Below are positions 1 to 16,309 of a stretch of DNA of 64,000 nt, in pieces. Both the position numbers and the translations under genes were made by a program. The notes beneath the pieces were generated by a model. The model was given only the letters and a program-made list of their open reading frames with translations. It made no database searches and was not told the DNA's origin. How positions within the stretch are numbered: position 1 is the first letter of the stretch; every line of letters starts with the position of its first letter. The DNA comes from Thermogemmatispora onikobensis (GTDB lineage Bacteria; Chloroflexota; Ktedonobacteria; Ktedonobacterales; Ktedonobacteraceae). The DNA is taken from contig NZ_BDGT01000006.1 of NCBI RefSeq assembly GCF_001748285.1, positions 1 to 64,000 on the forward strand, written 5' to 3'.

Positions 1-38
1 CCCCCCCATAGGGATGGGACAAGACCAATTCGATCCGA

Positions 39-591
39 GTTTCAATCCCAGACGGGCTTCTTCGCTGCTTCTGACTAGTCAGGGAGGGACCTCGCCATTA
101 GCTGCTCCAATGTTTCAATCCCAGACGGGCTTCTTCGCTGCTTCTGACAAACGCACCGTTCTGATGAGCAGTGGCGAGCCGTTATCGTTTCAATCCCAGA
201 CGGGCTTCTTCGCTGCTTCTGACGGTGTCCTTCACTGGCATAGCGATTGGCCACCTGAGTTTCAATCCCAGACGGGCTTCTTCGCTGCTTCTGACCGGAA
301 AATAGCTGCTGCCACCCGGACAATCTCCGGGGGTTTCAATCCCAGACGGGCTTCTTCGCTGCTTCTGACCCACCTCAATGGTGAGACCGGCCCCTCTCGC
401 ATCATGTTTCAATCCCAGACGGGCTTCTTCGCTGCTTCTGACATGCCAGAGTCTTCCTGGATGGCCTCAAGGGAATAAGGTTTCAATCCCAGACGGGCTT
501 CTTCGCTGCTTCTGACCCAGACGATAGAGCCGATTCGCCTCATCCCACAGTCCAGTTTCAATCCCAGACGGGCTTCTTCGCTGCTTCTGAC
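39..591 (-). CRISPR. CRISPR array, 8 repeats and 7 spacers, continues beyond the left edge
   Basis: Eight identical 37-bp repeats start at 39, 112, 187, 259, 333, 406, 480 and 555. Spacers are 35-38 bp. Bases 1-38 are spacer-length and probably a further spacer, so the array is cut by the window. On the minus strand every repeat ends GGGATTGAAAC, the 3' end usual in type I and III systems where ATTGAAAC becomes the crRNA 5' handle. This puts transcription on the minus strand, with the leader side at 592 onward, in agreement with the promoter at 604-632. No degenerate repeat is seen at the right end, as expected next to a leader. No cas gene is in the window, so the subtype cannot be fixed. 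Confidence 0.97.
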
Positions 592-603
592 AGCCCCTCC
601 TTC

Positions 604-2766: not shown

Positions 2767-5700
2767 ATGCCCCCAGCAGGAACGCAGATGAGCACATCCG
2801 GGAATCCTTCTCCAGGGGAGCGGCGGGCCCTGGTGGTAGGGGTCAATGAGGCCCCTCGTTCAGGCCAGGCCCCCCTGGCCACTGCGGCCAGGAGCGCTCT
2901 GGCGCTCGCCACTGCCTTGCAGGAGCACGGCAGCTTTGCGCTGGTCGGGGGAGGACCGCTGCTCAACGAGCAGGCGACCACGGAGCGGGTGAGACAGGCC
3001 CTCTATGCCCTCCTCCAGGATGCCCGTCCGCAGGATCTACTGCTGTTCTGCTTTTGCGGTCATGGCGTGCCGTGGCTGCTGCCGACAGAGCAACGCGAGG
3101 TGTATCTGGCGACGCACGATTTTGACCCGGCAGTGCTGCCGTTCGATCAGCGGGCGCACCTCTCGCTGAGCTGGCTGCGAGAGATGCTGCTGGATACCCC
3201 CGAGGTCCAGGCAGGGACGGTGATGGTACTGCTGGACTGTTGTCATGCCGGGCAGGCGACGACGCAGGCGCAGCGTGAAGCACAGCCGCTGGAGGGACTC
3301 ACCCAGGCGGTCCGGCACCTGTGGCACGCCGCTCTCGGAGGAGAGGAGCGGCCCCAGCGAGGAGCGCGGATCGTTCTGGCAGCTACCTCAGCGCAGGGCA
3401 CAACGCAGGAGCAGCGGGCGCAGGGCTGGACCCAGCTGGTCAGCGCCCTGCTGCCGGCGCTACGAGGAGCGCGTCCTGATCTGCTCGATGCGCAGGGGCA
3501 GCTCACCTATGAGCGGTTAGTGGATGACTTGCGCCAGCGACTGCCAGGGCTGACGACGGAAGCGACGGGGCAGGGGCGCGTGGTGCTGGCGACGTTTCAC
3601 CAGGGAGACCAGGCGGTACAGCAGGCGACACCGACAGCGCTGCGGGAATACGCGCGGCACCCGTTCAGTGAGGCCTGGCTGCAGGAGCGCGTGCAGCAGG
3701 TGGTCGGTCGAGAGCAAGAACTGCAAGCGCTGTGCCAACGGATTGAGTGCTTGCGGTCCACAGGCGGGTATCTGGTCGTCACGGGCGTGGCTGGGCAAGG
3801 GAAGAGTAGCCTGTTGGCCAGGCTGGTCACCACCTTCCCCTGTGAGCAGGAGGGAGGCCAGCCAGCAGCCTGGACGGTGCTGGCGCATTTCATCCCCCCT
3901 CAACCGGGGCCGGGCTATCAGGACATCTTGCTACGACACCTGGTCGCCTCGCTGCTGCTCAGGTCGGGCCTGGAGCCGTTCTCCGTGGAGCATGAGCCGC
4001 TGGCAGGGCTGCAACTGGCGCTGCGGCGGCTGCTGGAGGAGGTGGTCAAGCGAACGGGTCCGGTGCTGTGTTGTCTCGATGGGTTGGACCAGCTCCCAGA
4101 GGACAGCGCAGGCCGGGTGGTTCTCCCCTTGCCTGAGGGAGGGGAGCCAGTGCCCGGGGTCGTGTTTGTGCTGGGGACACGGCCCAGCCTGCTGCCCGTC
4201 CTGCAGTGCTATGAGCCGCTGGAGGTATATGCGCTGCCAGCGCTGAGCAGGCCAGACTGGCAGCGGCTGCTGCACCAGCGGCTGGCGGCCCACTCGGGTA
4301 TCCGGCGAGCGCTGACGCCGGAGCTGAGCGAGCAGCTCTATCTGCACATGGAAGGAACACCGCTCTTTCTGGATCTGGCGGCCCGCTTGCTGGCCACATC
4401 TGGTTCTGACGAGCTCTCTCCGGCAGCGCTCGCCCGCCGGGTAGCGGCGAATCCGCACCAGCTCTTCTCACTGGCGCTGGATCAGTGGGGACGCCGCCAT
4501 CCTGGAGCGCAGACCCGCTGGGGCCGGGTGATCCAGCCCCTGCTGGGGATCTTGCTGGTAGCGGCAGAGCCACTAGAGCGACGGCAGCTGAAAGCGCTGG
4601 TGCAGCTCTGGCAACGGCGTGAAGGGGGAGGCAGGTCCATTGATGGACAGGAACTGAAGCTGTGGCTGGAGCAGCTTGGAGGAGTGCTGGTAGAAGAGCG
4701 AGTGGATGGAGTGATTTCGTACCGTCTCTATCATGAGAAGTTTCGAGAGTACTTGCGCCGGGACCCGGACCAACCGGAGCGAGACTATCTCTTTGATGAA
4801 GAGGACGAGCAGCGGTGGCACGCGCTGCTGGCGGCCTGGTGTGAGGAGGAGGGGCTGGCGCGAATCTGGCAGGAGAGCCTGGAGAGGAGTGAGCAGAGAC
4901 GGCGGCACTATGCGCGCCGACATTACGTCTGGCACCTCTTCCAGGCGGGTCCATTGCAGTGGGGACGGCTCCTGGCCCTCCTGGATGCAGGCCACTATGG
5001 ACAAGAGAAGGTGCGCTGGGAGGTGAGTGGGCAGCAGTATGCACAGGACCTGGTGCTAGGACAGCGGGTGGCGGCCAGTGCGGGGGAGAGCGCGGAGGGG
5101 CTGCAGCGGTTGCCAGCGCTCTGGCGCTCCACGCTCTTACGTGCCAGCTTGAGTGGGATCGCAGACCGCTATCCGCTGGAGGCGTTTTCGCTCATGGCGG
5201 CGTTGGGGCAGGAGAGCAAGGCGCTGGGGCTGGCTGCATTGCGGAGTGACCCTGGAGAGCAAGCGAGGGCGTGGCTGGCGATCGCCCAGTGGTGGACCAG
5301 GGAGCCGGGGCGAGCCAGCGAGGTGCTGCAGCTTGGATACAGGGTGCAGCAGACAGCGCAGCGGATCGAGAGCGATGAGTCGCGGACCCAGGTGATGGAG
5401 GAGCTGGTCAGGGTGCTGCTGGAAGCGCAGTGCTACCAGGAAGCGGAGGAAGTCAGTCGGGCCATGGGGGACAGCTGTCTGCGGGCAGAGACGCTGGAAG
5501 CACTGGCGAAGGCGCTCAGGCAGGCGCAGCGTGAAGAGGAAGCAGCGCGGGTCGAAGAGATGAGCCGTGCCCTCTCGGACCGTCTCTCGAGGTCGTGGGA
5601 CCTGCTGAACCTGAAGAAAGCGCTCGCGCGGATGCACCGCACTGAGGAGGCGACGCAAGCCCAGCACGAAACGGAGGAAGGGAGTCGTTCCACCCCGGAC

Positions 5701-6450
5701 CGCTTCAGGCAGGCGGGGGTGCTCCTGCAGGCCCGGCGCTATCAGGAAGCGGAACGAGTCATCCGCGCTCTCCCGGACCGCTTCGGGCAGGCACGCGCGC
5801 TGACCAGACTCGCCGAGACGCTTGCGCGGGGGTCGTCCCTTGAAGAGGCGAGGAGGATCTGGCAGGAGGCGGAGGGGATGGTCCGGGCGAGTGAGGCCAG
5901 CTTCAGGCGAGCGCGAGCACTGATCGACCTGGCGGAGGCGCTCGCGCTCGCCCAGCGCACTGAGGAAGCGGAGCAAGTCTGGCGTGCAGCGGAGGACATG
6001 AGCCAGGCGCTTGCCGATGGCTTCTGGCGAGCGAGGGCCCAGGCGGAGCTGGCAGCAGCACGGGCGCGGATACAGGCTCCTCAAGAGACAGCGCAAGCCA
6101 TGCACCTCGGGAAACATTGCCAGGAGGTGGCGCTGGTGAGGAGGCTCGGGGAGCTGCTGACAGAGGGCCAGCGCTTCCAGGAGACAGCAGAAGCGATCCG
6201 CGCACATCGGGATCACGGGCTGCAGGCAGCGCTATGGAGACAACTGGGAGAGGCACTGGTTCGCGCTGACGCAGCCGCACACGGGTTCCTGGCTCTGCTG
6301 CAGCGTGCCTGGCTTGAGGCCCGCGGAGAACCCGACGCCCTCGCCCGCTTCTCCCTGGTCACACCCCTGGTCGTGCGTTCTCCCGAGCTGGGGCTGGCCC
6401 TGTTCGAGGCCTTCGGCTGGGTGGATCGTTTCCTGCAACATGCTCTGTGA
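2767..6450 (+). CDS. Caspase-NACHT ATPase with TPR-like repeats, putative suicide effector
   Basis: A 1227-aa protein led by a strong AGGAGGTGA site. Residues about 15-250 form a caspase-like (peptidase C14) domain with the catalytic pair His99 (in FCGHG) and Cys159 (in DCCHAG). A P-loop STAND/NACHT-type ATPase follows, with Walker A GVAGQGKSS (Lys346), a Walker B-like strand ending near Asp438 (CLDGLDQL) and a sensor-like GTRPS. From about residue 700 to the end there are helical repeats, many ending in ALA-xxLA patterns with Glu/Ala-rich 34-40-residue spacing, read as TPR-like. In characterised bacterial systems such proteins sense phage infection through the repeats, oligomerise through the ATPase and release the protease. 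The target here is unknown. It probably works with the small gene upstream. Confidence 0.85.
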   Translation: MPPAGTQMSTSGNPSPGERRALVVGVNEAPRSGQAPLATAARSALALATALQEHGSFALVGGGPLLNEQATTERVRQALYALLQDARPQDLLLFCFCGHGVPWLLPTEQREVYLATHDFDPAVLPFDQRAHLSLSWLREMLLDTPEVQAGTVMVLLDCCHAGQATTQAQREAQPLEGLTQAVRHLWHAALGGEERPQRGARIVLAATSAQGTTQEQRAQGWTQLVSALLPALRGARPDLLDAQGQLTYERLVDDLRQRLPGLTTEATGQGRVVLATFHQGDQAVQQATPTALREYARHPFSEAWLQERVQQVVGREQELQALCQRIECLRSTGGYLVVTGVAGQGKSSLLARLVTTFPCEQEGGQPAAWTVLAHFIPPQPGPGYQDILLRHLVASLLLRSGLEPFSVEHEPLAGLQLALRRLLEEVVKRTGPVLCCLDGLDQLPEDSAGRVVLPLPEGGEPVPGVVFVLGTRPSLLPVLQCYEPLEVYALPALSRPDWQRLLHQRLAAHSGIRRALTPELSEQLYLHMEGTPLFLDLAARLLATSGSDELSPAALARRVAANPHQLFSLALDQWGRRHPGAQTRWGRVIQPLLGILLVAAEPLERRQLKALVQLWQRREGGGRSIDGQELKLWLEQLGGVLVEERVDGVISYRLYHEKFREYLRRDPDQPERDYLFDEEDEQRWHALLAAWCEEEGLARIWQESLERSEQRRRHYARRHYVWHLFQAGPLQWGRLLALLDAGHYGQEKVRWEVSGQQYAQDLVLGQRVAASAGESAEGLQRLPALWRSTLLRASLSGIADRYPLEAFSLMAALGQESKALGLAALRSDPGEQARAWLAIAQWWTREPGRASEVLQLGYRVQQTAQRIESDESRTQVMEELVRVLLEAQCYQEAEEVSRAMGDSCLRAETLEALAKALRQAQREEEAARVEEMSRALSDRLSRSWDLLNLKKALARMHRTEEATQAQHETEEGSRSTPDRFRQAGVLLQARRYQEAERVIRALPDRFGQARALTRLAETLARGSSLEEARRIWQEAEGMVRASEASFRRARALIDLAEALALAQRTEEAEQVWRAAEDMSQALADGFWRARAQAELAAARARIQAPQETAQAMHLGKHCQEVALVRRLGELLTEGQRFQETAEAIRAHRDHGLQAALWRQLGEALVRADAAAHGFLALLQRAWLEARGEPDALARFSLVTPLVVRSPELGLALFEAFGWVDRFLQHAL

Positions 6451-6479: not shown

Positions 6480-8363
6480 CTACATGGCAATCTGCTCAAC
6501 TGCACACCGTTGATCCCAGTAGCCAATATATTCGCGTCCGTCGGGCTCAAGCCGACCGAAGAGATATTTGCGGTGAAGGTTGCGGTTGAAATATTCACAG
6601 CTCATCTCTGAGATGTGCATACAGGCATGGCAGGCTCCCATCTCTTCCAGGCAAACCGGATCGTAAATGCAGATCTCACCGGCATTCATGACTGCTCGAA
6701 GATGTTCATGCAGTGTCTGCTCAAAGAGGGTATACAGTCCTCCAATCGTGAATGCCGTTCGGTTATTGCTGTAGAGAACGAAGGAGAGCGCGCGGGGAAA
6801 GAGATATTCACTTAAGCTGGTCCGATCGAACCCGCTGAGAATGACAGCCTGGCGGAGTACCAGATGACTAAACGAGTGGACCAGCCCGAAGATTGCCTGG
6901 GTGACCGGCTGATCCCTGGTGATTTCCCGGAAGGGATTCACGTTCTTCATGCGGTTGAGAATCCAGGCGTGCAGCGTTGCCTCGTCGTCTGCGGCAGGCT
7001 CCTCTGTGATCAGCCCATTGAGCCTGAGCCAGCGCATCACACGCCGGAGGTTCAGGCGGAACAGCAATGCTTCAGTTTCCGTCGTCTCGGTATAGAGAGG
7101 CGTACGCGGGTCCTTCGACTGGAGGCGGGGAAAGGCACGAATCACGGTCTCATCAGCCTCACGACGGTCGCGGGTAAATCCGATGAGGACCGTTGTCACC
7201 GGAAAATCCCCGATCAGATGCACATCGGCCAGTCCCGTACTCAGTAGAGCCTGGCGATAGGCTTCCTGGTAGAGAGGGAGTCGACTGCTGCTCTCCTGAC
7301 GTGCCTTTTGCTCAAGGTCCTTGATGGTCACGACGTGCAGCGATTCTCTGATGCGAACGAACTCCAGTAACTCCCTTCCTGTCTCTTCAAGATCCTCTCC
7401 CTGCAGCGTGATCAGCTGCCTGGCCTGAGCGAGAACCCGGCGGCGATGAGCTCTTCCTGCCCCGGCAAACTCCTGTTGTAATGCATCCAGGTGGGCCTGC
7501 ATGATTGCTCGCCGCTCCGGGGACGCGGTACTGATATGCCGTGCCAGTGTGGCCAACGCATCCTGATCTGCAGCCTGTCCCTGAGCGCTTCCTGCCAGAT
7601 CGCGCAGACGGAGATCAGGTCCGTGATCAAAGATCCGCAGGCAGGCGGCAATGGCCAGCCACTGGCGTTCCGGATCCCTCAGGATGAGGTCGAGGTCCTT
7701 TCCTGGAAGATTGATCAGTGTCCGATACTGAGGATAGTAGGAAGCGGTGGCCCGATGAACGATGGGCCGCATTTGCTTCTTGGGGAGGTTGCAGTCATCG
7801 CAGGTGCCCTCGATAATGGGAGACTGGAAGGAGCAGAGCCGGCATTGCCAGCGGAACTGAGCATACTTCTGACTGTCACCTGTGTTCAGCCAGAGGTGCT
7901 CGCGCTTATGACGCGGACAGGATGGCAGGATGAAGGGTCGGATATGACCACAGCTATGGATCAGGACATGGTGCAACTGAATCAGGCGTCCCTTGCAGTG
8001 ATGACAGCGCAACTCCGGGTTGTACTGACTGACTTCTCCTACGTTATGGTAGAGGATAGCCCGTCTACACCCTTTGTTGGTGCATTCGAAGAGCAGCGGG
8101 AAGATTTCTGCCTGGACTGCCCTGGGAGTGACCAGCACGTAGCGGTCCTGCTGATGAATATCCGGAAAGCCTCGACGGCGCTCTTCTGGCCATTGCTGGA
8201 GCAGCCAGGCAACCCGATCAAGCACATAGGGTTTGTTCAGCTGTCGCTCGGGGTCATCACTTGCCTGAACATTGGTGACCTTGCAGATGAATTGCCCCCC
8301 CTCAAAGTCGAAGGTTTTCTCGGGCAGGAAATTGAAGAGAATCTGTTGTTTTCCTCGCCTCAT
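6480..8363 (-). CDS. drmB: DISARM protein DrmB (DUF1998 domain)
   Basis: A 627-aa protein, last gene of the DISARM operon, starting five bases after the drmA stop. The N-terminal half has paired cysteines that look like zinc ribbons (CTNKGC, CHHC, CRLC, CDDC). The C-terminal third is a DUF1998 module: HSFSHLVLRQA, then a cysteine cluster running CIYDPVC, GACHAC, EMSC. DrmB is a core DISARM subunit that forms a complex with the DrmA helicase and helps it act on incoming DNA. The gene ends 29 bp from the convergent caspase gene, so the two defence units share a terminator region. No drmC (phospholipase D) gene follows. Confidence 0.85.
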   Translation of the reverse strand: MRRGKQQILFNFLPEKTFDFEGGQFICKVTNVQASDDPERQLNKPYVLDRVAWLLQQWPEERRRGFPDIHQQDRYVLVTPRAVQAEIFPLLFECTNKGCRRAILYHNVGEVSQYNPELRCHHCKGRLIQLHHVLIHSCGHIRPFILPSCPRHKREHLWLNTGDSQKYAQFRWQCRLCSFQSPIIEGTCDDCNLPKKQMRPIVHRATASYYPQYRTLINLPGKDLDLILRDPERQWLAIAACLRIFDHGPDLRLRDLAGSAQGQAADQDALATLARHISTASPERRAIMQAHLDALQQEFAGAGRAHRRRVLAQARQLITLQGEDLEETGRELLEFVRIRESLHVVTIKDLEQKARQESSSRLPLYQEAYRQALLSTGLADVHLIGDFPVTTVLIGFTRDRREADETVIRAFPRLQSKDPRTPLYTETTETEALLFRLNLRRVMRWLRLNGLITEEPAADDEATLHAWILNRMKNVNPFREITRDQPVTQAIFGLVHSFSHLVLRQAVILSGFDRTSLSEYLFPRALSFVLYSNNRTAFTIGGLYTLFEQTLHEHLRAVMNAGEICIYDPVCLEEMGACHACMHISEMSCEYFNRNLHRKYLFGRLEPDGREYIGYWDQRCAVEQIAM

Positions 8364-8368
8364 TGCTC

Positions 8369-11300
8369 TTACCCCCTGATGGCCTGGCTCATGAGAAGGC
8401 GCGAGTCCTTGTCTGGAATGATATCAATCTGCTCATCAACATCCCGCAGGCTCTGCATCGGCTGTTCTGTCAGATTCTCGGAGGTGAAATTCTTCTGAGG
8501 ATTGCGCAGCATATCAAAGTACTCGCTGACCTTCTCCTGGATCACCTGTGCGAATTCCTGGCCACTTTCCTGCCTGCCTGTGCAGTAGGCCTCATTCAGC
8601 CAGGCGACCATTTCATCCGGTCGCAATCGGCGGCTTTCCAGGAGCTGGCGCACCTGTTTGCTGAAGTAGAGGGACTTCTTTCCTCCTCCTCCCAGCCTGA
8701 GGTTATAGTCATTCAAGAGCAAGGCCATGAAGAGTCCCGGGATGGTACGCCGGATGGCAAACTTGCTCCAGCGATTCACAGGAACGGGTTCCACCAGCCG
8801 ATCAAGATATTCGTGATACTTGGTGAAAAGGTGGTAGTGACTCTGATCCCGCTCTCGGGCCGGGTTGAAGCAAACGAAGACCAGGCCCGGGTGATCACGT
8901 CCAACCCGGCTGGAGGTCTGGATATATTCGGCAGTCTGGCGAGGCATTCCAAAGAAACACAGACAGTTGAGCCGCTCTACATCCACACCGTGGGAAATCG
9001 TGCTGGTCGCTGTCAGTGATCGCAGGCGCCGGGCAAAATCTGGATCAGGTTGTTCCAGCTGATCCAGGATCCTGGCGACCTCGGAAAAGGTGGTCGCACT
9101 GGTGATTGAACGGCTATCTACCTCGCTGTAGCCAGCCTCGGTCAGCGCTCGATTGAGTTGTCCCTCAAAGCTCTGATCAAGCCGATCCCCCTCCCGTCTG
9201 GACAGCAGATACGTCACAAAGACTTCATAGTGAGAAAGCATGCCCAGGAACCTGGCAGGGCTGTCCACCGAAGTCAGCTTCAGCCGGGCAATGGCTCCTG
9301 CAGGATCACGCCGCAGATCCTCAATGGCCTTGTGGTAGAGCTCTGCGATGCGAACAATGGCATTGATATGGGTATAGTTATGTGGCATGATTCCGATGAA
9401 GAGGCGTCGGAGGTTCTGAGCCTCAGTGGTAGCATAAAAGGATTCTCCTAACTCGGGACCGGGTACGGGGAACCGACGGGCCTTGCGGTTATACAGGTGC
9501 TCGATCTGATGCTCATATTCCTCGATAGTAGCAGTGGCAGCGATGATCTTCATGCGGACCTTTTGCATGCGCTGCTGATATGAGTCGATGAAAGTCTCAT
9601 AATGAGCATCGAAGGCGCCGATCTCCTGGCGGAGCAGGTGGAGCTCATCTTGTATTTGCAGAACCGGTGAAGGATCTTTCAGTCTGACCGGGATAAAATC
9701 CTTTGGTTTCACCGTGCAGGCGTATTTCTCTGTGCATTCTCCCAGGCTCAGGTATCCATGTTGAGGGCACTTGTGGGAGACAGCGCCAAAGAGATGACTG
9801 ACCTTGCGCTCGTAGCCGATGGCGGTAATCTTGTCAATCGTGCCAACCAGCACGGTGGGGAGATAGCGGTAGATCTCGTTATCCACAATGAAGACGGGCA
9901 GAATGCCCTTGCGAACAGCCTCGGAGCAGCTGGGATTGGTACAGCGATGGACCAGGCGGACTGTCTCCTCCTCCAGATCCATTCTCACACTGTGCTGACC
10001 GCAGAAAGGACAGCGAGGAATGGTCAGAAAGCTTTGCAGAAGCTGAGGCTGTCTCCAAAGGCGGTTGAGCCAGGAGTCCTGGCCGTTCTGGTTGTAGCTG
10101 ACGAGCCGGTTGGGCGTGTTATCTGCTCCAACCAGATAAGCCACGCTAAACGGATCGTACTCGTCGGTGTTGATGGGAGCGGTCTGACGGCGGAGACATT
10201 CAGCGGCGGCCAGAATGTCTGCCATGCGCTGCAGCTGTTGCAGAGAGAGCAGACGGAGGGGAAAACGCATCCAGGCTGTGACCCCAGCCGTTTTCCCTCG
10301 CAATCGGTCGAAGAACGCGGCACAGACAATCAGACCCAGATAAGCCTCAGTTTTGCCGCCGCCAGTGGGAAACCAGAGGACATCCACATAATCCCAGTCC
10401 TCACGCCCTTCTGGGAGGTCATACTCGCGGGCGGCAATGGCAGGTAGCTGCGTGACGATGTAGACAATCTGAAAGAGACGCCAGGAATCGTGGCGGCTGG
10501 CACTGGCAAAGGTCCGGTTCATCAGCTGAAAGGCTCGCAGCAGTGTGCTGTAGCGCTCCAGAACGCTGATTCCTCGCCGATAGCGAGCGATCTCCCCTGC
10601 AAATGCCTGCCAGTCACTCTCCGCTGCTGCCAGCATTGCAGCATCCCAGCCGGGATCTCGTTGCTGTGCCTGCAGTCTTTGCTCCCACTGGTGCAGATAC
10701 TGGTCCATTGCGTCAGCAATGGCGTGTAAAACGGGGATTGGCTCTTGGGCCAGATCCTGGAAGGCCGCCCCGGGCAGAGTGGACTCAACTCTATCCCGGG
10801 TGGTGTAGACCGGTTGCTGATAGATCGGCGTGTGCTCGGTTCGCACAGCATTCAGCTCTTCTACTCTGGCGACGCTGCAGTTGTGTCCTAACCCCCACAG
10901 GTGACGATCATAGCGATAATCTTTAGGAAGAAGATCGAAAACAAATGGCTGGAGCTCTGCATCCTGCCCCTCAACCTGCAGGCAAACATCAAACAGGTAA
11001 TGATCAGTGAGGGAGTGTTCTTGCCCATCGTCAGGGGAGTTGTTCAGAAGCATGAGTGAGATCTGAAGCAGGTCACCGACCACTGGACGTGCCTCGACCT
11101 GAAGCATGACCTGCCAGGACGGAAGCTCTTCCCGGCCAGTAGCAGCTATCTGGCGACAGAACCGCTCGAACGCTTCCTGATCGCTCAGTGCTTCAGGGGG
11201 AATTGCTGTACCTTTCGGAAGCTCATAGTAGCGGTGTGGATCGTTCAATATCTGCTGACAGGCGCGCTCCAGTGCCCTGGTGATAGCGAGCTGCGTCATG

Positions 11301-11773
11301 TGGTCACTCAATCGCTGGCGCCTGGAGAGCTGTTGCGGTATGGGTATGGCTACTGGTTCCACCTGAACACAGATCTTGCGATAGGCTATAGCCCATCGTT
11401 CCCGTGACCGGGGCTGCTCCTGGTCAGAGGTTTGGCGGGGATAGCCGGCGAGACGACGCTGATGCTCCAGATCGGGGAAAATTCGATAGTACACATTGAA
11501 GGCTGGCTGGACGAGTAATCGTGCCTTCTCTCCCCTGGGCTTGACCCTGATTTCAAGCCCCATTGAGGAAGGGGCCAGGCGCGAGAAAAGATCATCGTCA
11601 GGATCAGGGCCGTCCATCTGTTGAGGACGATTGGCCAGAGAGCCGATAAAGTAACGGTTGCGAGGGCGGTCATCCCGGCAGATATCCTCGCTTCGGCCCG
11701 TGAGCTGATCAAGCAAGCGGTGTTGCAGATACCGAGCCAGTCTGATCTCATCCAGGCGTTGAGGCGTTACCAT
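8369..11773 (-). CDS. drmA: DISARM helicase DrmA
   Basis: A 1134-aa superfamily 2 helicase. Motif I is FPTGGGKTEAYLGL near residue 468, motif II is the DEAH-like DELHLL near residue 709, motif III is ATATIEE, and motif VI is QTSSRVGRDHPG near residue 953. A four-cysteine zinc site (CPFC ... CTNPSC) is inserted near residue 590. The layout is that of DrmA, the DNA-binding helicase of DISARM. The ATG overlaps the TAA of the preceding gene (ATGGTAA), and the downstream gene follows after five bases, so translation is coupled. The first 450 residues match no other domain I can name and are typical of long DrmA proteins. Confidence 0.88.
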   Translation of the reverse strand: MVTPQRLDEIRLARYLQHRLLDQLTGRSEDICRDDRPRNRYFIGSLANRPQQMDGPDPDDDLFSRLAPSSMGLEIRVKPRGEKARLLVQPAFNVYYRIFPDLEHQRRLAGYPRQTSDQEQPRSRERWAIAYRKICVQVEPVAIPIPQQLSRRQRLSDHMTQLAITRALERACQQILNDPHRYYELPKGTAIPPEALSDQEAFERFCRQIAATGREELPSWQVMLQVEARPVVGDLLQISLMLLNNSPDDGQEHSLTDHYLFDVCLQVEGQDAELQPFVFDLLPKDYRYDRHLWGLGHNCSVARVEELNAVRTEHTPIYQQPVYTTRDRVESTLPGAAFQDLAQEPIPVLHAIADAMDQYLHQWEQRLQAQQRDPGWDAAMLAAAESDWQAFAGEIARYRRGISVLERYSTLLRAFQLMNRTFASASRHDSWRLFQIVYIVTQLPAIAAREYDLPEGREDWDYVDVLWFPTGGGKTEAYLGLIVCAAFFDRLRGKTAGVTAWMRFPLRLLSLQQLQRMADILAAAECLRRQTAPINTDEYDPFSVAYLVGADNTPNRLVSYNQNGQDSWLNRLWRQPQLLQSFLTIPRCPFCGQHSVRMDLEEETVRLVHRCTNPSCSEAVRKGILPVFIVDNEIYRYLPTVLVGTIDKITAIGYERKVSHLFGAVSHKCPQHGYLSLGECTEKYACTVKPKDFIPVRLKDPSPVLQIQDELHLLRQEIGAFDAHYETFIDSYQQRMQKVRMKIIAATATIEEYEHQIEHLYNRKARRFPVPGPELGESFYATTEAQNLRRLFIGIMPHNYTHINAIVRIAELYHKAIEDLRRDPAGAIARLKLTSVDSPARFLGMLSHYEVFVTYLLSRREGDRLDQSFEGQLNRALTEAGYSEVDSRSITSATTFSEVARILDQLEQPDPDFARRLRSLTATSTISHGVDVERLNCLCFFGMPRQTAEYIQTSSRVGRDHPGLVFVCFNPARERDQSHYHLFTKYHEYLDRLVEPVPVNRWSKFAIRRTIPGLFMALLLNDYNLRLGGGGKKSLYFSKQVRQLLESRRLRPDEMVAWLNEAYCTGRQESGQEFAQVIQEKVSEYFDMLRNPQKNFTSENLTEQPMQSLRDVDEQIDIIPDKDSRLLMSQAIRG

Positions 11774-14340
11774 GTCAGTACCGTTCCTTCCTTGAAGAAC
11801 CTCTGAGTGAGGGCAGGGGGGACCAGTAGTTCCCGCTGACTGACACTCACGACACGATGAATAGTGACACTGTCACGGAAATCATCCACATAGAGATTGA
11901 GCTCCTGGTCGATGCATTCCTCTGCGGCATCAGAATGAGTGCCACGCACTCCAGCCTGAATGATAACGCGATTCAACTGACGAGCCAGAGCCCTGTGCAA
12001 GGATCGAATACGGCGCAGGGCGCTGTCGATGTTCCGGTACTCCTGGATTAGAGCGTTATCCTCAAAGATGTAGCCAATCCGATAAATGTCTTCAGGATCG
12101 GAGGGCCCAAGTACCTGACCAGTGATCCAGCACCTGACTCCTGCAACCGACTGCATATGACTCCCTCGTTGCTGTAGCTCCTTGAGCAACTCTTCATATG
12201 TCAATTGTGCTTGCAGGAATCCTGCCCTGACAGATTCCTGCCAGTAGCGTACCAGCAGATAGGTGGCCCCCATTTTAGGATGACGTTTCACCCGCTCGAG
12301 AATGGCCTCGTAAAGGGTGCGGCGCTGCTGACCATCCACGAACAGCACCAGGTCACCTGCTCGTAGCCCTTCGACCACTCGCTCATCTATCTGCTCTGTC
12401 GCTGACAGGAATACCATCAGCCGGCTCTCTCGTGTTGCATAGCAGAAACCATCCTGGAAGTTCACACGGAAGGCAGGCACCAGAGACTTCTCAGAGGGCT
12501 GTTGTGGGAACACGGCAGAGGACACAGGGGGATGATCACTATCGCGATCATCAGTGCCGGGATCTCCTTCGTTCTGCTGATCATACTCAAGGGTCGAGAA
12601 GGGAGTCCAGATAGAGAGATCGGAAAACCCTGATAAAGCTGCGACCTTTCTGCGAGTCTGTCGGCTTCCTTCCCGACGAGCGAACTCTATGACAATGGGT
12701 GGGTGTCTCTGTCTGGAGGCAGCCTGGACCTGACTGGCTCCTCCAGAGACAAGAGCCTCCCAGGCTCGCTGGTGCGCCTCTTCACTGGCCAGTCTGCCCA
12801 GCGTCTGGTGCAGCGAGAGAAGTTGTTGCTCAATTCTCTCGGCTTCGTCGCGGTAAGCAAGGTAACGAATGTCTGGGGCTGCGGCGGTAAGAGCATACTG
12901 CCGGCGACCGTAACTGAACTGGCCGGGGAAGAGCAGGATATCAGCAGAGGAAAGAGTGCTCAGGTCTTTGTACGTAAGCAGGCGGATGGGAGCTTCCGCC
13001 TGCGCTTTGTCTGGCCTCTCCAGAGGCAGACGCTCGCGTGCACGCAGGCAAAGCTGCACCATTCGCAGACTGGCCTGATTGGGGCAGACTACTGCAAGGC
13101 AACCTGACTGACCTGACTGCTGTCGCTGCTCGCGTATCTGTTGAACCAGCGTATCATACTTGGGATTGCCCTCGAGCAGGGCCAGGCGCATATCCTTGAG
13201 ATCGAGCAATAACGATGGCCAGTAGATATTCTCGATCTCAGGTGCTTCAGTCCGGAGCAGAGGTGTAAACGCCTCCAGGTCAGCGATCCGTCGATCGATG
13301 GGGCGAAGACCCCAGAACCGGCTGGCCTCCTCTTCATAGACAGGGAGTGGCACCAGCAGCTGCAACATGGTGTAGAAGACGCCATAGGCAGCCTGAATCG
13401 CGCGACGCACGCCGGAGTCGCTTCGCCAGGGATCGGTGCGCTGAATAGTCCCCAGGTCATCCCACAGGCGGGAGGCTGCGTTTTCCAGCCTGGGATGGTG
13501 GCAAAGGACCAGCTGGTGGCGGATTCCACTGGCGATGTTGTTGAGCTGCCGTGCGCTGATCTCAAACGGGTGCCCCGGACCTGCGGCAGCTCCAGGCGAT
13601 GATTGGAGGGCCTCCGCCTCCAGCTCGGAGTGGCTCCAGGCCCATACAGGCACGCCTGCTTCTGCCAGATCTTGAAGATAAGGGGCAAATGGATTATTAC
13701 AGATATGTATAATGCAAGAAATTTTTCGATGTGCAGCAAGCTCATGGATGCGAGAGACCTGATCGATAAAGGTGTCGTCGGTATGGTCGACAATGATCGC
13801 TTTGATCCCGGTTGGCCAGGGCTTCTCAATCAGGAAGGGCCGCGGGAGATGATACAGCCGGGGAGGGTACCTGGCCTCTATACCTGGGGCAACAATACCA
13901 GCGGGCTCGCCGTCGTTGCGAATACGAGCAAGGGGAAAAGTTGCCGCCAGAGGTTCTTTGTCAACCCGTATATTCAGGTAATGCTCGCGGATCTCGGTCC
14001 GCGAACTGATCAGCATAAAAGAGGGCCTGGACCGATGGAAAAGTGTGGACTGGTGTCTCTCTGCAAAATCATAGATCAGGAGTTCTGCTGCCACCAGCGC
14101 TGCCAGATGGCAGATGGGGACGGGATAGACAATCGCCAGAGGACGACGATGGAGATACGCCTGCAGGCTCAGGCGCAGACAAAGCTGGTCCAGCCAGTGG
14201 AGCTGAATGCGATTGCGTCCATAGTAGAGGTGTTGTTCCTGGGCAAGGGTTACCAGATCGCGACCAGGGTGATGCTGCAGAACATGCCACCAGGGTGAGG
14301 TGGTGATTGCACTGTTTGAATCTTCATCTGCCGTCATCAT
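11767..14340 (-). CDS. drmE: DISARM class 2 protein DrmE
   Basis: An 857-aa protein from the ATG at 14340, chosen over an upstream TTG at 14379 because GCGAGG sits eight bases before it. It overlaps the end of the glycosylase gene by 17 bases. It has no enzyme motif that I recognise: the first 300 residues are Rossmann-like (YPVPICHLAALVAAE; AIIVDHTDDTFID), and the last 250 include GDLVLFVDGQ and long helices. Position between a C5 methyltransferase and drmA, and length, fit DrmE, the protein that marks class 2 DISARM. The name rests partly on context. Confidence 0.75.
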   Translation of the reverse strand: MMTADEDSNSAITTSPWWHVLQHHPGRDLVTLAQEQHLYYGRNRIQLHWLDQLCLRLSLQAYLHRRPLAIVYPVPICHLAALVAAELLIYDFAERHQSTLFHRSRPSFMLISSRTEIREHYLNIRVDKEPLAATFPLARIRNDGEPAGIVAPGIEARYPPRLYHLPRPFLIEKPWPTGIKAIIVDHTDDTFIDQVSRIHELAAHRKISCIIHICNNPFAPYLQDLAEAGVPVWAWSHSELEAEALQSSPGAAAGPGHPFEISARQLNNIASGIRHQLVLCHHPRLENAASRLWDDLGTIQRTDPWRSDSGVRRAIQAAYGVFYTMLQLLVPLPVYEEEASRFWGLRPIDRRIADLEAFTPLLRTEAPEIENIYWPSLLLDLKDMRLALLEGNPKYDTLVQQIREQRQQSGQSGCLAVVCPNQASLRMVQLCLRARERLPLERPDKAQAEAPIRLLTYKDLSTLSSADILLFPGQFSYGRRQYALTAAAPDIRYLAYRDEAERIEQQLLSLHQTLGRLASEEAHQRAWEALVSGGASQVQAASRQRHPPIVIEFARREGSRQTRRKVAALSGFSDLSIWTPFSTLEYDQQNEGDPGTDDRDSDHPPVSSAVFPQQPSEKSLVPAFRVNFQDGFCYATRESRLMVFLSATEQIDERVVEGLRAGDLVLFVDGQQRRTLYEAILERVKRHPKMGATYLLVRYWQESVRAGFLQAQLTYEELLKELQQRGSHMQSVAGVRCWITGQVLGPSDPEDIYRIGYIFEDNALIQEYRNIDSALRRIRSLHRALARQLNRVIIQAGVRGTHSDAAEECIDQELNLYVDDFRDSVTIHRVVSVSQRELLVPPALTQRFFKEGTVLTW

Positions 14341-15049
14341 GGGTTTTGCCTCGCTGGATGTTTCCGGCCACTGCAGCAAGTCCGTAACTGCATTGTGCCC
14401 TCACGGGACACGTTTTACATAGGGGTAAACGCTTCTTCATACAGATTTGATCGGCCAGGTCCAGCAGTGCATATGTATAGCGGCGTGGTTGCTCCGGATC
14501 AACCAGCGTCGCAGCCAGGTGCTGAAAGAGCCGGCTCCGTCGCGAAGAATCTCTGGTTTCCAGGCCAAACAGCCGTCCCAGTATCCGCACCACGTTGGTA
14601 TCAATCAGTGGTTCTGGCAGATTCCAGGCGAAGCAGCGGACAGCGCTGGCGATATACTCACTCACACCCGGCAGAGAGAGCAGAGGGGCTTTCTCCTGTG
14701 GAACCTGACCGCCAAAGCGACTCATGAGCTCCTGAGCCATGTTCTGGATCAGGTCAATGCGCCAGCGCAACCCCAGGGAATAGAGGATCTGGTGTAGCTG
14801 TTCTCTGCTGGCCTGTGCCAGTAAAGCAACAGTGGGGTAGCGTGCAATGAATGCTTCGTAAACAGGCACTACCTGCCGGGCCTGAGTACGATGCAGCATG
14901 ATCTCGGCCATAAGGATGTGATAAGGGTCTCCCGTCTGACGCCAGGGAAAGGAACGAAAGTGTTCCTTTCCCCAGGAAAGGAGAGACTGGCGGAAGGTAT
15001 GGGCATCGATGAAGTGGTTGAGGTCCGATAGAGCCTGGAGATCGCTCAT
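14324..15049 (-). CDS. HhH-GPD DNA glycosylase of the MutY/Mig type, probable T:G mismatch repair
   Basis: A 241-aa helix-hairpin-helix glycosylase. It has FPWRQTGDPYHIL, EIMLHRT (49-55), the hairpin LPGVSEY (126-132), catalytic-type Asp150 in IDTNVVRI, and a four-cysteine iron-sulfur motif (Cys203, 211, 214, 220). EndoIII has Lys and MutY has Ser at the residue that is Tyr132 here; Tyr at this place is the mark of Mig, the thymine glycosylase from Methanothermobacter that is encoded beside a cytosine methylase. The gene likewise sits between a C5 methyltransferase and drmE, so it probably removes thymine made when the host 5-methylcytosine deaminates. The cluster spacing is C-x7-C-x2-C-x5-C, one residue longer than the usual C-x6-C-x2-C-x5-C. 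Plain MutY activity is the alternative. Confidence 0.8.
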   Translation of the reverse strand: MSDLQALSDLNHFIDAHTFRQSLLSWGKEHFRSFPWRQTGDPYHILMAEIMLHRTQARQVVPVYEAFIARYPTVALLAQASREQLHQILYSLGLRWRIDLIQNMAQELMSRFGGQVPQEKAPLLSLPGVSEYIASAVRCFAWNLPEPLIDTNVVRILGRLFGLETRDSSRRSRLFQHLAATLVDPEQPRRYTYALLDLADQICMKKRLPLCKTCPVRAQCSYGLAAVAGNIQRGKTHDDGR

Positions 15050-15092
15050 AACCCTACCTTACCTGACTGGCTCTGCAACCTTGGTTGGAAGA

Positions 15093-16280
15093 CTAGCGCA
15101 CTGGCAAGATAGAAGGAAGAGATGCTTCCTTCCTTTCACTGCTAATGCCTGCCAGCACTCCAGGCCGAATAGCTTCTGCTACAGCTCGGGCCAGCAGCGG
15201 TGGTACAGCATTCCCTAACTGCGAAAACTGCCGGGTGAAAGGACCTGCGAAGCGGAAACGATCCGGAAAGCTTTGCAGCCGCGCTGCTTCGCGAACGGAT
15301 ATCGTCCTGGGGGGCTCAGGCTCCCCCTGACGACTGGGATAAATATATCGATACGAATCTTTGCCAATGTGGGCCTCGATCGTCCAGCATGGCCGGTCGC
15401 GGAAAAGTTTCCGGTACTTGTCCTTGAAGATGTCGTCGCGGTAGCGTTTGTACTCTGCAGGCAGGTCGACATACTTTCCCCCCTCTGGCAGCAAGGCAAA
15501 GGCCGCCAGGTCCTGCTCATTATGAGCGCGGGTCTGATGATTATAGAGAAGGTCACCAGCTCCCTCTCGCATCTGTCGCTGGTAGCTGGTCAGTTCCCCA
15601 CGTGGCTCATAGGGCATCACATCCAGACGATGGCGATGAGGTACAATGGGAAGATCACTGATCGCCTGCCATACAGTTACAGGGTGCTGCCGATGGGTTT
15701 GTGGAGGCCAGCGAATGCCGTGTCCGAGACGATTTCCAATCATAAAGAGGCGCTTCCGGGTCTGAGGTACACCGTAATCATCAGCCTGAAGAATCCGGAA
15801 ATCTACCACATAGCCCATTTCCCGGAAACTACGACTGGCCTTTTCCAGAAGTAATTCCTCACCATCATGATAATATTGCATATCTGGAACATTTTCCATA
15901 ACGAAATAAAGCGGTTGTAGTACTCTGATAAAACGGATGAATTCTTGATAGTATTGATTTCGAGGATCATGGATATAGCCAGGGTCTTTATGCAGGCGGC
16001 GCAGCTTGCCTCTCCCTACTCGACTGAATCCCTGGCAGGGTGGTCCGCCAATAATAACATCGACTCGCTCCAGGTTACGCTCCTGAATAAAGCGCACTGG
16101 ATCTGTAATAAGGCAGATATCTCCTAAGTAACAGGCATCTCCGAAATTGAGGCGATGAGTGCGATAGGGGAGGACCTCCTTTTCAATCCCCAGACCGATC
16201 TGATAACCAGCCATTTCGAAACCCAGACTGAGCCCGCCAGCCCCACAAAAAAGATCGAGAACGATGGGCTTCTCCTTCAT
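15093..16280 (-). CDS. drmMII: DISARM cytosine-C5 DNA methyltransferase (DrmMII)
   Basis: A 395-aa C5-cytosine methyltransferase with the motifs in order: SAM-binding DLFCGAGGLSLGFE (about 7-20), catalytic GGPPCQGFSR (Cys near 82), ENV, QTRKR near 170, RLQSFPDRF near 335 and QLGNAVPPLLARAVAEAI at the end. The recognition domain between QTRKR and RLQSFP is short, so one target sequence is likely. In class 2 DISARM this enzyme marks host DNA so that the helicase complex spares it. It is first in the operon. The ATG at 16280 follows GAGGTGA; an in-frame GTG just before it is less likely. Confidence 0.9.
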   Translation of the reverse strand: MKEKPIVLDLFCGAGGLSLGFEMAGYQIGLGIEKEVLPYRTHRLNFGDACYLGDICLITDPVRFIQERNLERVDVIIGGPPCQGFSRVGRGKLRRLHKDPGYIHDPRNQYYQEFIRFIRVLQPLYFVMENVPDMQYYHDGEELLLEKASRSFREMGYVVDFRILQADDYGVPQTRKRLFMIGNRLGHGIRWPPQTHRQHPVTVWQAISDLPIVPHRHRLDVMPYEPRGELTSYQRQMREGAGDLLYNHQTRAHNEQDLAAFALLPEGGKYVDLPAEYKRYRDDIFKDKYRKLFRDRPCWTIEAHIGKDSYRYIYPSRQGEPEPPRTISVREAARLQSFPDRFRFAGPFTRQFSQLGNAVPPLLARAVAEAIRPGVLAGISSERKEASLPSILPVR

Positions 16281-16309
16281 CACTCACCTCGCGGTCAACA
16301 AAAGAGCCT

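What the first reader, a model, noticed from the sequence alone, without database searches (positions are those of the whole stretch)
14324..15049. Mig-type active site and widened Fe-S loop in the glycosylase
Tyr132 replaces the Lys of EndoIII and Ser of MutY, as in Mig T:G glycosylase, and Asp150 is kept. The cysteine spacing C-x7-C-x2-C-x5-C is one residue longer than normal, which might alter cluster stability or DNA sensing.
Basis: partly seen in the sequence, partly recalled or inferred. Interest (0 to 1): 0.6.

Follow-up and report, generated by a model that had tools for sequence, protein, structure and literature searches.

The report
Methylation-damage repair gene inside DISARM
A bacterial antiviral gene cluster that marks its own DNA by methylating cytosine appears to carry its own repair enzyme, probably one that fixes the mutations those marks cause when they decay; repair genes of this kind often sit beside such methylating genes, and once the two are fused.

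Summary
The ORF, Tyr132/Asp150 and the C-x7-C-x2-C-x5-C motif are as stated. Better discriminators side with Mig: no C-terminal 8-oxoG domain, Ala57 for MutY Val45, Tyr193 for MutY Gln182 (Mig has Leu), Phe34, Arg54, Leu94. The extra loop residue is real and kept in 8 of 9 close relatives, but one has normal spacing, and nothing points to altered cluster function.

Context says more. The gene is second in a five-gene DISARM operon, behind the C5-cytosine methyltransferase. Among the 30 best family hits in the phylum, 9 of 12 Mig-type genes lie within 1.5 kb of a C5 methyltransferase, 0 of 18 MutY-type. Among 42 DISARM-like loci, Mig-type genes occur in 5 of 9 with a C5 methyltransferase, 0 of 33 without. 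The pair recurs with other defence modules, once as a natural fusion. Most likely it is a Mig-like T:G (U:G) glycosylase repairing deaminated 5-methylcytosine. No activity was tested; the tree leaves its exact relation to Mig open.

The parts
14324..15049 (-). Mig-type HhH-GPD DNA glycosylase, 241 aa, no C-terminal 8-oxoG domain
   Evidence: ORF; PF00730; residues and tail length
14654..14656 (-). codon of Tyr132 (Lys120 of EndoIII, Tyr126 of Mig)
14600..14602 (-). codon of catalytic Asp150
14879..14881 (-). codon of Ala57 (MutY Val45, Mig Ala50)
   Evidence: role from PMC2714593
14471..14473 (-). codon of Tyr193 (MutY Gln182, Mig Leu187)
   Evidence: role from PMC2714593
14390..14443 (-). [4Fe-4S] motif C203-x7-C211-x2-C214-x5-C220
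15093..16283 (-). C5-cytosine DNA methyltransferase (DrmMII), motifs I, IV, VI, VIII and X present
   Evidence: PF00145; PADLOC DrmMII E 7.8e-124; motifs
11767..14379 (-). DrmE; an ATG at 14340 would overlap the glycosylase 3' end by 17 bp
   Evidence: PF24957, PADLOC DrmE, junction sequence
8369..11773 (-). DrmA helicase
   Evidence: PADLOC DrmA E 2.6e-179
6480..8363 (-). DrmB
   Evidence: PADLOC DrmB E 5.1e-65

Best explanation
The protein is a monofunctional Mig-like mismatch glycosylase that works as the repair partner of the adjacent DISARM C5-cytosine methyltransferase. The methyltransferase makes 5-methylcytosine; when that base deaminates to thymine, a T:G mispair forms. The glycosylase flips out the T (or U), Asp150 and Glu49 drive base removal, Tyr132 and the Phe34/Arg37/Tyr193 pocket hold the base, and host AP endonuclease and polymerase restore C, so host sites are neither mutated nor lost as protection sites. 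Shown here: sequence, operon, recurrent association and natural fusion with C5 methyltransferases. Inferred: T:G/U:G specificity, catalytic roles, and the protective purpose.
For: Specificity positions published for MutY/Mig (V45/A50, Q182/L187; PMC2714593 passages) are A57/Y193 here; Tyr193 is in 9 of 9 close relatives (window included), Ala57 in 7 of 9, while 12 of 12 MutY rows have Gln and 11 of 12 Val. F34, R54, L94 as in Mig; MutY rows have L, Q, Y 12 of 12 each. The part after the aligned core is 5-18 aa in the close relatives against 86-176 aa in most MutYs. Of the 30 best family hits in 400 genomes, a C5 methyltransferase lies within 1.5 kb in 9 of 12 Mig-type and 0 of 18 MutY-type (Fisher 1.5e-5). 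In 42 DrmA/DrmE loci, Mig-type in 5 of 9 with a C5 methyltransferase and 0 of 33 without (p 1.5e-4). Natural fusion L058:444-2393. The paired methyltransferase can be nearly unrelated (about 25% identity in L032, L033). The genome's only strong C5 methyltransferase match is this one; no Vsr found.
Against: No activity measured. The Mig Leu187 position is Tyr here, and two close relatives (L034, L064) have Val at the Ala position; L034 has Asp for the catalytic Glu; the fusion has Gln at the Leu187 site. The tree does not place the clade with Mig: a Mig-type clade is not rejected (AU p 0.647) but neither is query clade plus MutY (0.463). PADLOC's Mig model scores the host's own MutY higher (134 bits) than this protein (115). 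Three Mig-type genes in one genus have no C5 methyltransferase near. E. coli MutY V45A/Q182L did not gain T:G activity (PMC2714593), so these positions are not sufficient. The host has two UDG-family proteins that might handle U:G.
Confidence: 0.75

Rival explanations
1. A defence effector: the glycosylase excises bases (mispaired, methylated or modified) in invading DNA, making abasic sites or nicks that block it or help DrmAB load.
For: It lies in a defence operon, with drmE overlapping its 3' end; base excision as restriction is known for the R.PabI family (PMC10273834 passages); no drmC-like ORF was found in window 1-25000.
Against: It follows the C5 methyltransferase, not DrmA/B: 0 of 33 DrmA/DrmE loci without a C5 methyltransferase have it, and it pairs with that enzyme beside Mza genes, GHKL-ATPase genes and on plasmids too. 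G092 and G118 have both it and drmC.
Confidence: 0.1
2. A truncated or second MutY: an A:G/A:8-oxoG glycosylase that lost its C-terminal domain.
For: Best PDB matches are MutY (E 4.6e-39) ahead of Mig 1kea (9.5e-34); Tyr132 is also in most MutYs.
Against: The host already has a MutY with a C-terminal tail; V45/Q182 not kept; MutY rows form their own clade, 99/99, without it; no MutY-type hit of 18 has a C5 methyltransferase neighbour. Placing the clade with MutY costs 20 log units, though AU p is 0.108.
Confidence: 0.08
3. The x7 loop makes a special Fe-S cluster that senses DNA or redox state.
For: x7 kept in 8 of 9 members of the close clade.
Against: L033 in the same clade has x6 and Thermus L048 has x5; all four Cys are kept in 9 of 9; no structural evidence, model pLDDT 62.7.
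Confidence: 0.03

Closest known systems
Mig.MthI, T:G mismatch glycosylase of Methanothermobacter plasmid pFV1 (PDB 1kea)
   Same: HhH-GPD core with four cluster Cys, no C-terminal domain, same Glu, Arg, Ala, Tyr and Asp positions, gene near a C5 methyltransferase
   Different: About 30% identity; Tyr193 for Leu187; one extra residue between Cys 1 and 2; sits in DISARM rather than beside an NgoPII-family R-M pair
MutY adenine glycosylase
   Same: Same core family, catalytic Glu and Asp, usually Tyr at the Lys120 site
   Different: Has C-terminal 8-oxoG domain, Val45/Gln182, Leu22, Gln42, Tyr82; 0 of 18 MutY-type loci near a C5 methyltransferase
Dcm-Vsr very short patch repair (recalled; PMC6116569 abstract start seen in a search listing only)
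   Same: Same logic: T:G repair enzyme carried with a C5 methyltransferase
   Different: Vsr is an unrelated endonuclease (recalled); none found in this genome
DISARM with DrmMII and DrmE
   Same: drmMII, drmE, drmA, drmB operon
   Different: Inserted glycosylase gene; no drmC found near

Membership tests
Mig (T:G mismatch glycosylase) | HhH-GPD core with catalytic Asp and four cluster Cys | tested here: met
Mig (T:G mismatch glycosylase) | Tyr126 in place of EndoIII Lys | tested here: met
   Tyr132; but not diagnostic, 11 of 12 MutY rows also Tyr
Mig (T:G mismatch glycosylase) | Ala50 and Leu187 instead of MutY Val/Gln | tested here: inconclusive
   Ala57 matches; Tyr193 is neither Leu nor Gln
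Mig (T:G mismatch glycosylase) | No C-terminal 8-oxoG domain | tested here: met
   ORF ends 21 residues after the last Cys
Mig (T:G mismatch glycosylase) | Linked to a C5 methyltransferase | tested here: met
   adjacent gene; census
Mig (T:G mismatch glycosylase) | Common ancestry with Mig apart from MutY | tested here: inconclusive
   Mig-type clade AU p 0.647, alternative 0.463
Mig (T:G mismatch glycosylase) | T:G and U:G excision | not testable with these tools
   needs an enzyme assay
MutY | C-terminal 8-oxoG domain | tested here: not met
MutY | Val45 and Gln182 | tested here: not met
   Ala57, Tyr193
Endonuclease III | Catalytic Lys120 | tested here: not met
   Tyr132
DISARM | DrmA helicase and DrmB | tested here: met
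DISARM | DNA methyltransferase (here DrmMII) | tested here: met
DISARM | PLD nuclease DrmC | tested here: not met
   no drmC-like ORF in window 1-25000 (BLAST with one drmC query); reported non-essential in PMC9142583 (passages)

The most novel reading that the evidence does not exclude
The glycosylase is an active arm of DISARM: guided by or fused to the methyltransferase, it excises mispaired or modified bases in invading DNA, creating abasic sites that become breaks on which DrmAB loads, so base excision is part of the immune response and not only housekeeping repair.
Probability: 0.07. Interest if true: 0.8.

Novelty: new variant of a known kind. Interest (0 to 1): 0.45.

Why it matters
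Defence systems that mark host DNA with 5-methylcytosine raise the host's mutation load by deamination, above all at high temperature (established chemistry, recalled). If DISARM and Mza-type loci carry a dedicated repair enzyme, as Dcm carries Vsr, this cost has shaped how multi-gene defence systems are assembled, and the methyltransferase plus glycosylase pair becomes a portable 'mark and guard' unit. The natural fusion makes the link directly testable. I found no report of a DISARM glycosylase in the library searched, which lacks most subscription papers.

Tried and rejected
Tyr132 as the deciding residue: rejected, since 11 of 12 MutY rows share it. PADLOC PDLC03398 as proof of Mig: rejected; the model matches Mig over its full length at 533 bits but scores the host MutY above this protein. 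NCBIfam mutY also matches all six proteins given, all below its cut-off, the host MutY included. Strict monophyly with Mig: unresolved. AlphaFold model: mean pLDDT 62.7, low around the cluster, so not used and no fold search run. Viral contigs: no relative found with the single protein. Row L039 was a wrongly chosen ORF; it was dropped and replaced by L069. The HMM hit in L144 was an Nth-like protein with Lys, not Mig-type.

Limits of the counts: the 30 loci are the top scorers only; at least one weaker Mig-type gene (G196:C41, L040) fell outside them, and it too has a C5 methyltransferase near. Nine of the 41 DISARM stretches other than the window are under 14.5 kb because of contig ends or how I cut them, so a methyltransferase could be missed there. 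The plasmid loci (pFV1 plus 8 of 94 hit records) were picked by rank or annotation, not at random; 8 of these 9 list a cytosine methyltransferase, L045 does not. L094 and L034 were found by the glycosylase and are left out of the 42-locus count.

Full report
OBSERVATION. The ORF at window 14324-15049 (-) translates to 241 aa and matches Pfam HhH-GPD. In an alignment with E. coli MutY and Nth, pFV1 Mig and relatives, Tyr132 falls on MutY Ser120/Mig Tyr126 and Asp150 on the catalytic Asp. The Cys spacing is x7-x2-x5 where Mig, MutY and Nth have x6-x2-x5. One premise does not: Ser at this site is an E. coli feature. In 12 MutY rows, 11 have Tyr, and the literature says the same of BsMutY (PMC2714593, passages).

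WHICH ACTIVITY. PMC2714593 (passages) names MutY V45 and Q182 (Mig A50 and L187) as specificity positions, and proposes that residues matching Mig F27, R30 and L187 would complete the thymine-methyl pocket. Here these positions are Ala57, Tyr193, Phe34 and Arg37. Across the 9-member close clade Tyr193 is invariant and Ala57 holds in 7 (Val in L034 and L064). Arg54 and Leu94 also side with Mig; 12 of 12 MutY rows have Gln and Tyr there. Glu49, Tyr132, Asp150 and Asn152 are kept; L034 alone has Asp for the Glu. The C-terminal 8-oxoG domain is missing; its role in MutY is given in PMC9266487 (passages). Against this, Tyr at the Leu187 site is not Mig's residue, and changing V45 and Q182 in E. coli MutY did not give T:G activity (PMC2714593), so sequence alone cannot prove specificity.

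FE-S LOOP. x7 is found in 8 of 9 members of the close clade; L033 has x6. Of 33 other rows 32 have x6 and Thermus L048 has x5. This looks like ordinary length variation in a family whose four Cys are otherwise nearly invariant. The structure model (mean pLDDT 62.7) cannot judge it.

DESCENT. In a 42-row tree with the columns of window residues 53, 54, 57 and 193 left out, MutYs form one clade (99/99) and the query sits in its own 9-row clade (100/97). Holding all 27 Mig-type rows together is not rejected (AU p 0.647), nor is joining a 13-row query group to MutY (0.463); placing the 9-row clade with MutY costs 20 log units (p 0.108). Thus: outside MutY in the best tree, compatible with Mig, not proven sister to it.

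OPERON. On the minus strand lie a C5 methyltransferase (15093-16283; PADLOC DrmMII 7.8e-124), the glycosylase, DrmE, DrmA and DrmB. The methyltransferase has motifs I, IV, VI, VIII and X (motif names recalled). A drmE ATG overlaps the glycosylase end by 17 bp, and drmE and drmA also overlap. GC is 0.557 for 6480-16283 against 0.625 in 16826-40000. The five other genomes held for the genus have one MutY-like match each and no DrmE match, and none has a strong C5 methyltransferase match (one has a weak partial match that the window's genome shares). The island is therefore accessory and probably acquired. The genome also has a MutY, two Nth-like genes and two UDG-family genes, but no Vsr and no other strong C5 methyltransferase match.

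ASSOCIATION. A genome-contig scan gave five close homologs (62-71%; L030-L034) and one remote Nth-like hit (L035); a sixth close homolog is in G092. All that have upstream sequence (L030, L031, L032, L033, L036) lie directly behind a C5 methyltransferase; L034 is cut off by its contig end. In L030, L031 and L036 the methyltransferase is 69-75% identical to the window's, in L032 and L033 only about 25%. A profile search of 400 genomes of the phylum gave 30 loci: 12 Mig-type (Phe/Tyr at 34 and Arg/Lys at 54) and 18 MutY-type. A C5 methyltransferase lies within 1.5 kb in 9 of 12 and 0 of 18 (Fisher 1.5e-5 with the window, 3.8e-5 without). The three without belong to one genus.

DISARM CENSUS. The DrmE search (6 places) and the DrmA search (37 places) give 42 distinct loci, one being found by both. 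Nine have a C5 methyltransferase in the stretch taken, and 5 of these (G000, G092, G118, G094:C86, G165) have a Mig-type gene; 0 of 33 without one do (p 1.5e-4, or 6.9e-4 without the window). Some stretches are short. So the glycosylase tracks the methyltransferase, not the helicase. In G165 the two are one 650-aa protein beside DrmB and DrmA (L058:444-2393). Elsewhere the pair sits with Mza genes (L032, L095), GHKL-ATPase proteins (L031, L091; in L033 the ATPase gene is on the other strand) or SLOG/TIR genes (L030). Mig itself lies on pFV1 near an NgoPII-family nuclease and a cytosine methyltransferase, and 7 of 8 further plasmid loci that I picked have one annotated within the stretch shown.

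MECHANISM. DrmMII methylates cytosine, and DrmAB ATPase is weaker on 5mC DNA (PMC9142583, passages). Deamination of 5mC gives T:G, which mutates the host and erases the mark (established chemistry). A T:G glycosylase carried with the methyltransferase counters both. This purpose is inference; what is shown is residues, linkage and fusion. The effector rival is not excluded but does not explain why the gene follows methyltransferases through different defence systems.

NOVELTY. Mig near a C5 methyltransferase is known. A Mig-type gene as a recurrent part of DISARM and Mza loci, with Tyr193 and a methyltransferase fusion, was not found in papers searched. In PMC12458937, a survey of YprA-family helicases that include DISARM's, the word glycosylase does not occur in the main text. 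The library lacks most subscription papers, so this is a limited statement.

Noticed in passing
window 38-594: Eight copies of a direct repeat (about 37 nt shared) at 72-75 nt spacing with different sequence between: a CRISPR-like array near the window edge.
   Followed up: partly
window 2767-6450 (+): 1227-aa protein with AAA/NACHT matches next to the DISARM operon; its N-terminus looks caspase-like by eye.
   Followed up: no
L040:7464-8174 and L068:1450-2139: Two distant Mig-type proteins have His in place of the second cluster cysteine, both in an N-P-x-H context; a possible His-ligated or lost cluster.
   Followed up: no
L031:6864-9119, L091:7530-9713, L033:2217-4400: A large protein (728-752 aa) lies beside the methyltransferase-glycosylase pair in three loci; those of L031 and L033 match two GHKL ATPase models, near the N- and C-terminal ends, and that of L091 is 56% identical to L031's. 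Possibly an undescribed defence module.
   Followed up: partly
L038, L039, L097 (genus g12): Mig-type glycosylases with Trp at the Leu187 site and no C5 methyltransferase found in 16-19.5 kb.
   Followed up: partly
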